A DNA stretch of 41,406 bases from Leucosporidium creatinivorum (taxonomy: Eukaryota > Basidiomycota > Microbotryomycetes > Leucosporidiales > Leucosporidiaceae): assembly GCA_001600635.1 (NCBI GenBank), contig BCKL01000019.1, forward strand, positions 328,879-370,284. Direction: 5' to 3'. The number at the start of each line of letters is the position of its first letter. Position 1 is the first letter of the stretch. Under the pieces are notes generated by a model. The model worked only from the letters and a program-made list of their open reading frames with translations, ran no database searches and was not told the origin of the DNA. Shown in pieces: positions 1,117-24,458 of this stretch. A program made the translations under genes and the position numbers.

Positions 1117-2415
1117 TCACTCTTGCGAAATGTGAAGCGCCTCCTCCAATATCTCGCACCCCGACACGCCGTTGAGGAAGCCGCCTTGGTAAGCCACCTT
1201 GATGCGAGGACTGTCCTCGTACATTGAGGGAGCGCCGCCGGCGTTGCTGGGTAGGATGCTCAACCCATGCCTAGCGCCCCAGTGGATGAGCGCCGCGTAG
1301 TTGCCGTTGGCGGACACGCGGACGTCGGCGGCCGACATGAGGCGAACTTCGTCGAGAGGGTCTCGGCCTGCGCCGTCGTGGAAAGTGAAGGGGTGGTCCA
1401 GAGGGTAGAGGGTGGCGTTTCCCCCTTCCATGAAGATGTGTACGTCGAGCGAACGGCACGCGGCAAAGGTGTTGACAATGGCATTGGAGATGGCGAGGGG
1501 AGTGCTCCGAAGCGTGGCGTTGCTTGCTCCCCCCGAGTCGAAGCCGAGGCGGTTCTGCGTGTCGCCCCAGCGAACGTGGATGGCGACCGACGTCTTGGAA
1601 TTGGCGTAAGGTTTGGGTGGAGGAGGAGGGACGCTGCAAAGGGAGAGTACGATCAGTTTCGGCGTTTCTCGCTCGAAGCGAGCCGGAAGCTGATACTCAC
1701 TCGAGGAGCGTATCCAACCACTTCATCGTGCACCGTGCAAAGTCCCACCGATAGTCCCATGCGTGGTCGTCTGCAGGAGAAGAGCGCCAGCTTGTCAGTA
1801 CAATCGCCGTGCCCGAATATCTCGGCAGCCGAGGCACTCACCGAGGATGAGAGTGCACTTCTCCAGCGCTTTGAGCTCGGGCGTGAGCTCTCCGGTCGAA
1901 CAGAACGACTTGAGAGCGGAGTGAAAAGGCTCGGATGATTGCTTGAGACCTGGAAACCGCGCCGACAGCAGGCAAACCTCGGTNGTGTCGAGGTCGAGGT
2001 GCTTGTACCGGTTGAGCCAGTCTGAGGCTGAGTAGTTGTGGTCGGTAGGNNTGGTNGGNATNATCAANTCGGCGCCGAGTGCNGTNGCNCCCGCCGCCGC
2101 GCTTTGGCTCTGGCCGATGGCGCTGCCNAGCCCGCTGNNATTGTCCTNGANGGTNCGCAACCAGANTCGGCGAGGCTTGGGGACGGTGACGGGCGTGCGC
2201 TGGGAGGCGTAGAGCGAGGTGCCGAGGGCGAGAAGGGCGAAGAGTGCGAGGAGAGACGTCCAGATGAGGCGCGAGAGGGAGGGCGAGGACTGTCGGTGTG
2301 TGGGTCGCCATTCGCCGATGTGCGAAGGGTCGTTGTCCTCTTCTGCTAAGAGGGGCTCGCTAAGACCCAGGTCCTGCGTTGGCGGGTAGCGCAGACTGTC
2401 GCCGAGGTTGACCAT
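1117..2415 (-). CDS. type II membrane fucosyltransferase-like protein, paralogue A
   Basis: Three exons (2415-1842, 1770-1701, 1633-1117) give 386 aa. A short cytoplasmic tail with a possible LSEPLL dileucine-type sorting motif precedes one membrane segment (around residues 45-65) and a lumenal domain. The last exon carries SVAIHVRWGD, the HxRxGD motif of the GT-B fucosyltransferase superfamily (GT11/GT23/GT65/O-FucT), where the Arg contacts GDP-fucose. The C-terminal part (SAADVRVS...ALIHWGARHG) resembles the acceptor-end motif of these enzymes. The start is supported by alignment with the paralogue at 6657-7978, which begins at the matching Met. About 20 ambiguous bases between 1984 and 2166 leave unknown residues in the stem region. 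The exact acceptor and donor are unknown; fucosyl transfer is inference from the motif and the neighbouring GDP-mannose dehydratase. Confidence 0.8.
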
Positions 2416-3121
2416 GATGAGGGAGCAAGGCAAGATACAAACGCGGGAAACGGGAGCAAGCCTTCCTCAGACGGGAGCGATTCGAGACCAGTACTTTGAG
2501 GGACAAAAGTCCATGCGACAGTCGTGCAGCTTGCCCTAGCGCTCTGCTTATTCCCTCCTGCTTCCGCTTCCTCGCCTGCACTCTGCCTATCCATCCTCAC
2601 CCGCTGCTTTTCCCCTCTCGGTCGACTTCGGCGCTGGCTCGGCGCTCGCTCTTCTCTTTGCAACATGGTTCTCCCGCCTATCCCTACCTCTTAACAACGC
2701 TCTGCTCCTACACGACTACGAACCACCCTGCTTCAGCTCAGCACGCTTATTACAGCTCACGTCTTCTAGCTGCGAATTGGGCCTGGTTGGCCGGGGTTGG
2801 GGTTGACCCGAGACATNTTACAAGCGCAAGAATACATCTGGTCAGCAGTATTGTCGAGCAGGAGCACAGACAGCCTCTCGTTCCAATGCCCTCTACAATA
2901 TCTGTGCGAGCGAGAGCCGTCCCAGAGCCGAGCAGAAAGAAATGCTCGGCGGGCGTCGGCGATAGCTCTCCACTCTGGCAAGCGGGCACGAGGGTATGGT
3001 GTAAACAGCGCTGGCTTGCAGCATCAACCCCTGGAATACATAGAAAGCACTGACAGCCCCAATCTCCAAGAATACATCTATAGCGAGAGCGGAGAAGGGA
3101 GCGACTCGCGCATCCAATCTG
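2416..3121. promoter_or_regulatory. intergenic region: promoter of paralogue A and 3' end of GMD
   Basis: About 700 bp between the start of the minus-strand paralogue A and the stop of the next minus-strand gene. No conserved coding sequence is seen. Bases 2560-2640 have a pyrimidine-rich plus strand, which is purine-rich on the gene strand. One ambiguous base lies near 2817. The promoter role is inferred from position only. Confidence 0.4.
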
Positions 3122-22114: not shown

Positions 22115-22714
22115 GCTGAACGACACAGAGCGAGAGGAGGAGCGCGCACCAGTCAACACACAATATCGAACCCGCGACTGGGAGCAATTCCTGGAACCTC
22201 TCGACTCCGATTCAAGAAGGCGACGTGGGGTGTGTTCTTCGTAGGCGAGGCTCTTGGACGGTTCTATAAGTCTATCTAGAAGTCTAGACGCCCTACGGAT
22301 TGGTAGATGCTGATAGCTGCGACGTGACGTGGCTGTCGACAGTGAAGAAGCTGAGATTCAGGCTGACGACCTCGAGTTGGCTCGCATGCTCGACTTCCTT
22401 CTTCCCAAGTCCCGCTCACCTACAGCAGGCAGCGAAGAGACTTGAGACTGCTGGCTCAGCGCCTTCTTATCCCACGCTCTGCTCGGACGCTGGTGCCAGC
22501 CCACTCAGGGCAGCAAGGCAGCGAGAGCCGCTCGGCGATCTTGCAGGCCAAGGCAGCGTTCGTATGTATTGCTCGTCGGGAAGCGATGAGACGATGATCA
22601 AGCCATGTCACCGGTATCAGTGAATATGAGGCGACTGCTCGCGGTACATCTGTCCTGCCCGCTGATTCAGAAGGCGACACTCCTCATCTTACAACACCGA
22701 GAAAGTCTACAACG
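22115..22714. promoter_or_regulatory. intergenic region between GTS copies 2 and 3
   Basis: 600 bp containing the copy 2 upstream region. I find no frame with splice signals or family similarity. The direct-repeat-like AGAAGTCTAGA near 22279 is short and probably chance. Confidence 0.35.
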
Positions 22715-24458
22715 CTACAAGGGAAGGGTATCGTGGCAGGAGGGGGGCATAGTAGGTCTAATCGAAAAGTCTAGCTTCTCGGGGCACTGCAAACAGAACT
22801 GAATTCCCTCGTTGAGCGAGAGCGGAGAAGGCGAGGCGGAGAGGGGAGGGGAGGAGGGTCGACGATGTCGTAGAGCGCGGTTGAGGGTCATTTGGAAGAT
22901 CATGTCGTTGCTGAAGAGGATTAGAAACGTTGGTCAGCTTTCTGAGGAAGTCTGGACGAGCGGAGCCAAGTGGGAGAAGAAGAGCGAAAGCCGAGGCGAC
23001 TCACACAGGCGAGCAGGAGTGCATGCCAGCATAGTTACACTTGCCGTGCCAGTGGAAAGAACTGGCTTGGCTGAGTGGGAACTCCATCGTGTCGAACATG
23101 GCGCCACCGAGAGATGACCTGGCGAGGAATCCAGATTAGCGAACCGCTGGCGAGCCGAGCGGCGAAACACCAGCCTACACATCGAAAGCCTCAACTCGGT
23201 CTTCAGAGCTCTGTGAGGTGCTTGCTGCTAGAGCGGAGACTACCTCGGGACTCCACGAAACCTCAGGAGACTGGGTCCGATGGCTAGCGAGGAAAGCGCC
23301 GTCCCATCCCTCGCCGAGCCAACTCCGATATGTCGCCAGCGTCGAGTAGTTGCCAGCAGCGTTGCCGTTGACCTCCCATAGCACAACATCGGGTCCTCTC
23401 CCGTCCCTCTCCTTCCCCATCTGCTGAAGCATCGCCTTCGAATCCCGAGTGTAGTCGCCGACGCAGAGGTTCTCGTTGGTCGTCCGGATGCACTGCTCCC
23501 TGAAGTCGAGGTAGGAGAGACGGAGGCGATGCACCTCGACCGAGAGCCTTCCCCAGCACTTCCAGAAGTGCGAGGTCGGCGCCGAGAGGTTGGCGGCTCG
23601 TTCGCCTAGGAGGTGGTCGAGTCCGGCGAAGAAGATGCCTCTCCAGACCGAGGTTCCGACGACGGCGATCCAAAGGTCCTGCTCGGCGAGCTCCTCGGCG
23701 GTGTAGATGTGGAAGTAGCACGTCCGAGGGAGCCAGATCCAGCCGTACCGAACGCAGGCGAGGGGAGTGTCCTCGCAGCGCACCCAGCGCCCTTCGGTCG
23801 TGTCCTCCTCTCCTGTACAGCGATCCTGGGGGAAAGCGAGCTCTTGACGACCTGATCCTCGAGCGACCGAACCATCTTGGCGAGCGACCGTAACGTTGAA
23901 GCCTTCGACTGGACCGAGCGAGCGCCAGTAGGGGTAAGGCTTCGTGACTTGACCCCGCTTGAAGACGTCGGCTCGTAGGGTGTACACTCCAGCATCGAGT
24001 GGACGGTAGCGAGCGATGTAGCGACCTCCTCCTTCGTATACGACCTTGGCAGCGAGCCTCGCCGGCCCCTCGAGCGTTACGCTAATCGCTTCATCGGCGC
24101 CGAGGGATGGGCCGTTCTTCCTCGCGGGTAGGTCGATGTAGATGATACTTTCCACGCCCTGCTTGCCTCCCGCGATCCCTGGCCCTCCTAATCGAGCTGC
24201 ACTGCTGAGCTTTGACTTTCCCCAGTACGCATGTTCGGGAAGCTCGAGAGCGCTGCCTCCGCCTGGATGGTCGAGATGTGGAGGATGTCGAGTGTGGAAC
24301 TGAAGTGCGAGGAAGCCGAGGAGGACTAGGAGGAAGATGCTGATGGTGCGCTTCTTGCTGAGACTCGCAGCCGGAAACGACGTCGGAAGGAGAGATTGCT
24401 GAGGCTGCGAAAGGAGGGGGGCATCGTCCAGCTTCTCCCTCGGCGCCTGGTGGGCCAT
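22715..24458 (-). CDS. Ig-like + GTS-type PC-esterase-like membrane protein, copy 3
   Basis: Three exons (24458-23179, 23118-23005, 22910-22715) give 529 aa, with splice sites and phases matching copies 1 and 2. A tail with possible dileucine signals (DDAPLLSQ) precedes an anchor at about 38-53 (TISIFLLVLLGFLALQF). The Ig-like domain (ISVTLEGPARLAAKVVYEG) is the most diverged of the three. The central block from GFNVTVARQDG through VVGTSVWRGIFFAGLDHLL to FWKCWGR is nearly identical to the other copies. FHWHGKCNYAGMHSCSPV holds the candidate His. An in-frame ATG at 24554 could extend the protein; I chose 24458 because it gives a tail length like the paralogues. Probably a Golgi glycan-modifying enzyme; activity unknown. 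Confidence 0.82.

What the first reader, a model, noticed from the sequence alone, without database searches (positions are those of the whole stretch)
1117..24458. Contiguous fungal gene cluster for a modified 6-deoxyhexose surface glycan
Ten consecutive genes are all plausible glycan enzymes: GMD, three single-domain HxRxGD transferases, one tri-modular transferase, one pyruvyl transferase-like, one canonical PC-esterase and three GTS-type relatives. Nine have an N-terminal anchor. Seen: motifs and gene order. Known: GMD makes the GDP-fucose precursor, PC-esterases and pyruvyl transferases decorate surface polysaccharides, and Microbotryomycete walls contain fucose. Inferred: the genes act together on one polymer, like a bacterial capsule locus or an expanded analogue of the scattered Cryptococcus capsule genes.
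Basis: partly seen in the sequence, partly recalled or inferred. Interest (0 to 1): 0.88.

Follow-up and report, generated by a model that had tools for sequence, protein, structure and literature searches.

The report
Fungal sugar-coat gene cluster
A stretch of a fungal genome packs together about a dozen genes that look able to build and decorate a sugar coat (mannose, a fucose-type sugar, and pyruvate and perhaps acetyl caps), whereas such genes are mostly scattered in fungi; what the genes make has not been tested.

Summary
Ten intron-bearing or single-exon genes lie between 1117 and 24458. Curated profiles confirm three: GDP-mannose 4,6-dehydratase (B), a tri-modular protein with a Nucleotid_trans and an O-FucT domain (D), and a pyruvyltransferase (F). 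F is Pvg1p-type and keeps the three proposed catalytic residues and the disulphide cysteines of S. pombe Pvg1p. The others rest on motifs. A, C and G carry HxRxGD but reach no profile. H has the PC-esterase motifs GDS and DxxH. E, I and J have a filamin-like domain and a GTS serine but lack the canonical Asp residues; E's reading frame is broken.

So one window supplies GDP-mannose, starts its conversion to a 6-deoxyhexose donor, and probably spends it.

Best reading: a Golgi gene cluster building or decorating an acidic, 6-deoxyhexose-bearing mannan or galactomannan. One published Rhodotorula acidic polysaccharide has a fitting composition, two others do not, and the window's species is unknown. 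No reductase completing GDP-fucose, no polymerase and no Cryptococcus-type capsule gene was seen. Synteny and co-expression could not be tested. New variant of a known kind; interest about 0.58.

The parts
1117..2415 (-). Gene A, 386 aa, N-terminal anchor, HxRWGD motif; candidate GT-B fucosyltransferase-like enzyme (holds 17 ambiguous bases)
   Evidence: Gene model; H.R.GD at aa 234, anchor KD 2.04; paralogue of C, 53% over 411 columns; its two fragments have no Pfam match
3122..4935 (-). Gene B, GDP-mannose 4,6-dehydratase, 391 aa, 10 exons, no anchor
   Evidence: TIGR01472 599 bits, cut-off 415; PF16363 524 bits; PDB 5in4 E 7e-166; model
6657..7978 (+). Gene C, 405 aa, N-terminal anchor, HxRWGD motif, paralogue of A; where A has its second intron C has an open in-frame stretch
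   Evidence: only a sub-threshold TMEM234 match in Pfam
8301..11683 (-). Gene D, 988 aa, tri-modular: N-terminal module of unknown family, Nucleotid_trans, O-FucT with HIRRGD
   Evidence: PF03407 108 bits (cut-off 22), PF10250 44 bits (cut-off 31.5); in the unspliced ORF the same two are hit, O-FucT only in part and below cut-off at 25.7 bits; N-terminal module no significant match; whole protein no PDB match
12572..14301 (-). Gene E, GTS-type paralogue of I and J; reading frame broken by one base near 13.74 kb (pseudogene or sequence error)
   Evidence: repeat families D1-D5 and D7
14915..16427 (-). Gene F, Pvg1p-type pyruvyltransferase, 417 aa, N-terminal anchor
   Evidence: 5ax7 E 1.7e-62; PF04230 92 bits; D106, R217, R337 and C68/C373 equivalents kept
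16800..17882 (+). Gene G, 360 aa, single exon, N-terminal anchor, HYRYGD motif
   Evidence: no Pfam, no significant PDB match, no NCBIfam; model pLDDT 37, not used
18312..20106 (-). Gene H, anchored SGNH/PC-esterase-like enzyme: GDSNLR, SLGSH, DSVH
   Evidence: Gene model, last exon read straight through by hand from the ORF; motifs read by eye; no Pfam family and no significant PDB match
20359..22114 (-). Gene I, 540 aa, anchor, filamin-like domain, GTS serine and C-terminal His
   Evidence: Foldseek matches to filamin domains on a low-confidence model
22715..24458 (-). Gene J, 529 aa, anchor, filamin-like domain, GTS serine and C-terminal His
   Evidence: PF00630 21 bits, below cut-off 26.9; PDB filamin-B 2dia E 0.0095
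32210..34908 (-).
   Evidence: PF00483 98 bits (cut-off 21.2), PF25087 GMPPB_C 67.5 (cut-off 39) on a 333-aa stretch of the model
35230..38147 (-).
   Evidence: PF11051 49.6 bits (cut-off 22); anchor KD 2.27; gene model

Best explanation
A fungal gene cluster whose products make or decorate a mannose-rich, acidic, 6-deoxyhexose-bearing surface or secreted glycan. SHOWN by profile: the window encodes GDP-mannose synthesis (GMPPB), its conversion to GDP-4-keto-6-deoxymannose (GMD, no anchor), a mannosyltransferase, a protein fusing an O-FucT and a Nucleotid_trans domain, and a Pvg1p-type pyruvyltransferase. INFERRED: (1) a reductase encoded elsewhere turns the GMD product into GDP-L-fucose (or another GDP-6-deoxyhexose), which is moved into the Golgi; (2) anchored Golgi transferases (D; more tentatively A, C, G) add 6-deoxyhexose and other branches to a mannan or galactomannan; (3) F puts a pyruvate ketal on terminal beta-galactose, giving negative charge; (4) H, and with less certainty I and J, add or remove O-acetyl groups. 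That all act on one polymer is inference from clustering and chemical fit.
For: Profile-level identity of B, D, F, GMPPB and the mannosyltransferase. F keeps the three proposed catalytic residues of Pvg1p, found by numbering the 5ax7 chain with an offset of 53. Hydrophobic N-termini in all but B suit lumenal work. A and C diverge with dN below dS (0.31 against 1.06 over 363 codons), so both look maintained. C's N-terminal motif has a weak, correctly placed match to D's O-FucT module (36% over 36 aa, E 0.06) and to G (E 0.08); these E-values are for a set of 14 own sequences without composition correction, so they are hints only. A published acidic exopolysaccharide of Rhodotorula sp. RY1801 is Man:Rha:Glc:Gal:Fuc 44.9:1.0:3.7:8.0:4.6; a glucuronide standard was run and glucuronide is not listed among the main sugars (PMC8419279 passages), which leaves room for another acidic group such as pyruvate. 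The gene name TSTA3 (GDP-fucose synthase, meaning recalled) appears in a Rhodotorula glutinis transcriptome (PMC12733683 passages).
Against: No reductase that would complete GDP-fucose, no polymerase and no nucleotide-sugar transporter was seen among the gene models scanned. A, C, G and H reach no profile. I, J and E lack the canonical Asp residues, and E is broken. Three genes with other or unknown roles lie between J and GMPPB or after the mannosyltransferase: one without Pfam match, a YTH gene, a 2-hydroxyacid dehydrogenase. GMPPB is a housekeeping gene in fungi (recalled). No upstream motif specific to the cluster was found. Other Rhodotorula polysaccharides have no fucose: R. toruloides EPS is 89% glucose (PMC12628781 passages) and the neutral R. 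glutinis EPS studied is a dextran (PMC12733683 passages). The RY1801 paper has no occurrence of 'pyruv' or 'acetyl'. The species of the window is unknown.
Confidence: 0.52

Rival explanations
1. The enzymes decorate glycoprotein N- or O-glycan outer chains, as in fission yeast, and not a free polysaccharide. F would cap beta-galactose on N-linked galactomannan, the mannosyltransferase would build outer chains, and D, A, C, G would add 6-deoxyhexose.
For: Pvg1p, the closest solved relative of F, works on N-glycan galactomannan in the Golgi and gives S. pombe its surface charge (PMC6801904 passages). Mannosyl_trans3 enzymes serve glycoprotein mannan (recalled). O-FucT families include protein fucosyltransferases (PMC10481521 passages).
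Against: The number of decorating enzymes is large for one protein-glycan cap (judgement). The RY1801 exopolysaccharide is secreted, though it may itself be mannoprotein.
Confidence: 0.25
2. Coincidental or loosely linked neighbours: tandem duplicates (A/C and E/I/J) inflate the count, and the rest are ordinary glycosylation genes with separate roles.
For: Five of the ten genes belong to two paralogue families. Only 3 of the ten are profile-confirmed. Genes with other roles are interspersed downstream.
Against: Even counting only profile-confirmed glycan genes, 5 of 15 is unlikely at an assumed 3% background, P 6e-5, though 6e-4 at 5%. The classes are chemically matched: GDP-mannose supply, GMD, O-FucT.
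Confidence: 0.18
3. A decaying or fast-evolving locus: the enzymes diversify by duplication and gene conversion, and some copies are no longer active.
For: E's frame is broken; E, I and J share a near-identical tract of about 360 bp with more diverged flanks; GTS replaces GDS in all three.
Against: The break in E may be a sequence error, since the window holds 19 ambiguous bases. The spliced models of I and J are open over 540 and 529 aa.
Confidence: 0.05

Closest known systems
Galactosaminogalactan (GAG) gene cluster of Aspergillus (uge3, gtb3, agd3, ega3, sph3)
   Same: A fungal exopolysaccharide locus with precursor enzyme, transferase and decorating enzyme side by side; five coregulated genes (PMC4817252 passages)
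   Different: Different sugars and enzyme families; none of its five genes is described as GMD, O-FucT, pyruvyltransferase or PC-esterase; co-regulation shown there, not testable here
Colanic acid and other bacterial capsule loci
   Same: Fucose, galactose, pyruvate on terminal galactose and O-acetyl groups in one polymer (PMC6801904 passages); GDP-mannose and GMD genes with decorating enzymes in one place (gene content of the bacterial locus recalled)
   Different: Here genes have introns, N-terminal anchors and lie on both strands; no GDP-fucose synthase, flippase or polymerase seen in the window
S. pombe Pvg1p pathway for pyruvylated galactose on N-glycans
   Same: F is 40% identical over the aligned region and keeps D106, R217, R337 and the disulphide cysteines
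   Different: Not known here whether the acceptor is N-glycan or polysaccharide; the Pvg1p H168 position is Glu in F
Cryptococcus capsule genes (CAP10, CAP59, CAS1 and kin)
   Same: Basidiomycete surface polysaccharide with O-acetyl groups (for Cas1p, PMC2824669 passages)
   Different: None of those families was found among the gene models (family names recalled); genes there are scattered (recalled)
NXPE and other filamin-like plus PC-esterase proteins
   Same: I, J, E: N-terminal anchor, filamin-like domain, then a Ser-motif domain; filamin-like Ig domains fused to PC-esterases are described (PMC2824669 passages); NXPE1 acetylates sialic acid and needs its GDS serine (PMC12216134 passages)
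   Different: GTS for GDS, no canonical DxxH, no PC-esterase profile match

Membership tests
GDP-mannose 4,6-dehydratase (B) | Curated equivalog score | tested here: met
   TIGR01472 598.9 bits, cut-off 415
Pvg1p-type pyruvyltransferase (F) | Family profile PF04230 and similarity to Pvg1p | tested here: met
   91.8 bits, cut-off 25.3; 5ax7 E 1.7e-62
Pvg1p-type pyruvyltransferase (F) | Proposed catalytic D106, R217, R337 and disulphide C68-C373 | tested here: met
   All five kept in the alignments; residue list from PMC4872226 passages
Pvg1p-type pyruvyltransferase (F) | PEP-dependent pyruvylation of beta-galactose | not testable with these tools
   Needs enzyme assay
O-FucT, PF10250 (D) | Profile above cut-off and HxRxGD-type motif | tested here: met
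   44 bits, cut-off 31.5; H.R.GD at aa 851; the direct POFUT1 match 3zy2 is only E 0.53
O-FucT, PF10250 (A, C, G) | Profile above cut-off | tested here: not met
   No PF10250 match in C or G or in A's two fragments; motif alone
PC-esterase (H) | GDS, W/H in place of the canonical Asn, DxxH | tested here: met
   GDSNLR, SLGSH and DSVH read by eye in the model; definition from PMC2824669 passages
PC-esterase (H) | Match to a Pfam PC-esterase or SGNH profile | tested here: not met
   0 families at E up to 10; the 2010 description says most members were not recognised by the profiles of that time
PC-esterase (E, I, J) | GDS motif | tested here: not met
   GTS in 3 of 3
PC-esterase (E, I, J) | DxxH | tested here: not met
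   By eye: a GMH His is kept in 3 of 3; no Asp three residues before it in any; I has an Asp five before
PC-esterase with filamin-like domain (E, I, J) | Filamin-like Ig domain | tested here: inconclusive
   Pfam 21-23 bits for J and E, 13 for I, cut-off 26.9; PDB 2dia E 0.0095 for J; Foldseek best E 1.1e-4 to filamin domains for I on a model of mean pLDDT 46.5
Bacterial capsule-type locus | Donor synthesis genes with transferases and decorating enzymes | tested here: met
   GMPPB, GMD, D, F by profile
Bacterial capsule-type locus | GDP-fucose synthase, flippase and polymerase in the locus | tested here: not met
   None among the 15 gene models scanned, several as fragments; the contig ends 1.1 kb beyond A
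Fungal polysaccharide cluster (GAG-like) | Co-regulation and conserved gene order | not testable with these tools
   No fungal genome collection; own genome not held
Cryptococcus capsule gene set | CAP10, CAP59 or CAS1 family member | tested here: not met
   No such Pfam match

The most novel reading that the evidence does not exclude
A self-contained basidiomycete 'capsule locus' spanning some 37 kb that carries donor supply (GMPPB, GMD), transfer (a three-domain transferase and the HxRxGD enzymes) and three kinds of capping (6-deoxyhexose, pyruvate ketal, O-acyl), making an undescribed pyruvylated, 6-deoxyhexose-bearing galactomannan; a convergent fungal counterpart of colanic acid-type loci.
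Probability: 0.28. Interest if true: 0.78.

Novelty: new variant of a known kind. Interest (0 to 1): 0.58.

Why it matters
Genes for fungal wall and capsule glycans are mostly found one by one (recalled). A cluster that joins GDP-mannose supply, the 6-deoxyhexose branch, a Pvg1p-type pyruvyltransferase and candidate O-acyl enzymes would give a ready gene list for an acidic, fucose-bearing polysaccharide, and candidates for the fungal fucosylation enzymes that PMC10481521 calls elusive. The three-domain protein D and the filamin-like GTS proteins are testable enzymes of uncertain activity.

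Tried and rejected
Relatives: scans of viral contigs with J, G, D (first two modules), F and the F/Pvg1p alignment gave none; two scans of genome contigs with F and the alignment gave none. Genome contigs holds bacteria and archaea and viral contigs viruses, and the patterns used were not always the most conserved parts, so this says little. Own genome not held.

Structures: the model of G had mean pLDDT 37 and was not used. The model of I had mean pLDDT 46.5; only its filamin-like part gave sensible matches, and none of the 50 rows shown (of 1150 with E up to 10) is named as an SGNH or esterase protein.

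Profile-profile comparison of A/C, G, H, I/J and D modules gave probabilities of 13% or less in 7 of 7 pairs: no support for a shared family beyond the short N-terminal motif. A BLAST match between F and H (E 6e-4 in a set of 14 sequences without composition correction) starts in the hydrophobic anchors of both (F 17-118, H 23-130, 25% identity) and was not taken as homology.

Shared promoter motif: CGCCGAGC occurred upstream of 7 of 10 cluster genes, above 60 shuffles, but also upstream of 3 of 5 other genes and in 42% of 2000 random 500-bp pieces of the window: rejected as a common word.

Literature: no paper describing such a cluster showed in the listings of the seven searches that aimed at fungal fucose, wall or exopolysaccharide genes; only the top 4-20 papers of each were listed, from a library of open-licence PMC papers. 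Three further searches were on NXPE1, GAG and Cryptococcus. Papers were read as passages only: PMC10481521, PMC12216134, PMC6801904, PMC8419279, PMC2824669, PMC12628781, PMC12733683, PMC4872226, PMC6492006, PMC4817252; the rest were seen in listings.

Full report
WHAT WAS CHECKED. The window is 41,406 bases, 56-63% G+C per kilobase, with dense short introns. I made gene models with a splice-aware dynamic programme trained on long open frames of the window and corrected them by hand.

THE TEN GENES. A (1117-2415, -), B (3122-4935, -), C (6657-7978, +), D (8301-11683, -), E (12572-14301, -), F (14915-16427, -), G (16800-17882, +), H (18312-20106, -), I (20359-22114, -), J (22715-24458, -). Gaps between neighbours are 252-1721 bp.

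FIRM IDENTITIES. B is a GDP-mannose 4,6-dehydratase well above the curated cut-off. D joins a Nucleotid_trans and an O-FucT domain, both above Pfam's cut-off in the spliced model, behind a 400-residue module without significant match. In one unspliced open frame the Nucleotid_trans domain and the start of the O-FucT domain (25.7 bits, below its cut-off) already follow each other, so the fusion does not depend on the splicing model. F belongs with Pvg1p, the fission yeast galactose pyruvyltransferase. [quoted passage not shown]

SOFT IDENTITIES. A, C and G have H.R.GD once each. C's N-terminal stretch resembles the same part of D's O-FucT module (36% over 36 residues, E 0.06) and of G (E 0.08), in a set of only 14 sequences and without composition correction. 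That fits a GT-B fucosyltransferase-like fold but does not prove it, and no profile agrees. H shows GDSNLR, SLGSH and DSVH by eye, the pattern that defines PC-esterases (definition in PMC2824669 passages), without profile support. E, I and J carry an N-terminal filamin-like domain (Pfam below cut-off; PDB 2dia E 0.0095 for J; Foldseek for I) followed by a GTS motif and a conserved C-terminal His. Filamin-like domains fused to PC-esterases are described, and NXPE1 acetylates sialic acid and needs its GDS serine (PMC12216134 passages). The trio lacks the Asp of GDS and of DxxH, so membership is not established and activity is doubtful.

Downstream at 32210-34908 lies a GMPPB-type GDP-mannose pyrophosphorylase and at about 35230-38147 an anchored Mannosyl_trans3 enzyme, both above Pfam's cut-off. 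Between J and these are a gene without Pfam match in 3 of 3 fragments scanned (about 24.8-28.6 kb) and a YTH-domain gene (about 29.4-31.9 kb); after them comes a 2-hydroxyacid dehydrogenase. Of 15 gene models in the window, several scanned as fragments, 7 have a Pfam domain above cut-off and 5 of those 7 are glycan genes: B, D, F, GMPPB and the mannosyltransferase. Two of the five genes right of J being glycan genes has a chance of about 0.8% at an assumed 3% background.

HOW IT LIKELY WORKS. GMPPB makes GDP-mannose, GMD turns part of it to the 4-keto-6-deoxy form, and a reductase not seen in this window completes GDP-fucose or another GDP-6-deoxyhexose. Anchored transferases in the Golgi lumen then build and branch a mannan or galactomannan; F adds a pyruvate ketal to terminal beta-galactose; H, and perhaps I and J, adjust O-acylation. 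The donor steps and the pyruvyl step follow from firm families; the rest is inference. The acidic exopolysaccharide of Rhodotorula sp. RY1801 has mannose, galactose and fucose in the ratio 44.9:8.0:4.6 (PMC8419279 passages). That is the kind of composition such a locus would predict, but the text of the paper holds neither 'pyruv' nor 'acetyl', and two other Rhodotorula polymers have no fucose.

RIVALS. The strongest is that the caps sit on glycoprotein N-glycans, as Pvg1p's do in fission yeast (PMC6801904 passages). A second is that the neighbours are only loosely related, since five of ten belong to two duplicate families.

EVOLUTION OF THE LOCUS. E, I and J share a tract of about 360 bp (about 21172-21531 in I) in which every 60-bp window is 86-100% identical between any two copies, while windows outside it range from 26 to 93% (up to 73% for I and J, up to 83% for E and J, up to 93% for E and I). 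Longest identical runs of 130 (E-I), 67 (E-J) and 83 bp (I-J) were reached in none of 1000 column shuffles each. Between I and J, dS is 0.16 inside the tract and 1.29 outside, so synonymous sites are homogenised as well: recent gene conversion over the segment with the GTS serine. A and C diverge with dS 1.06 and dN 0.31.

VERDICT. The single-polymer claim is plausible and untested. Precedent: the five-gene GAG cluster (PMC4817252 passages). No report of this cluster showed in the searches listed under Tried and rejected.

Noticed in passing
13327-13626, 21115-21414, 23486-23785: Near-identical tract shared by the three GTS genes (about 21172-21531 in I) with more diverged flanks; dS 0.16 inside against 1.29 outside for I and J: gene conversion over the motif region.
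   Followed up: yes
around 13740: Reading frame of gene E broken by one base near one end of the converted tract; pseudogene or sequence error.
   Followed up: partly
7400-7462 (approximate): Where gene A has its 67-bp second intron, gene C has a stretch of about 63 bp without a good donor site, in frame and open: possibly an intron turned into coding sequence.
   Followed up: partly
1-95 and 5916-6010: The first 95 bases of the window repeat exactly upstream of gene C, so the contig may end in a repeat or an assembly overlap.
   Followed up: no
2030-2190, also about 2817 and 5394: 19 ambiguous bases in the window, 17 of them inside gene A.
   Followed up: no
10480-11683 (-): The N-terminal 400 residues of D hold an EPD motif (read by eye) and may be a third transferase module, but match no Pfam family significantly.
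   Followed up: partly
24857-28595 (-): Long gene (rough model) with no Pfam match in 3 of 3 fragments scanned.
   Followed up: no
29378-31879 (-): YTH-domain gene (rough model), PF04146 47 bits with cut-off 22.1, inside the glycan stretch.
   Followed up: no
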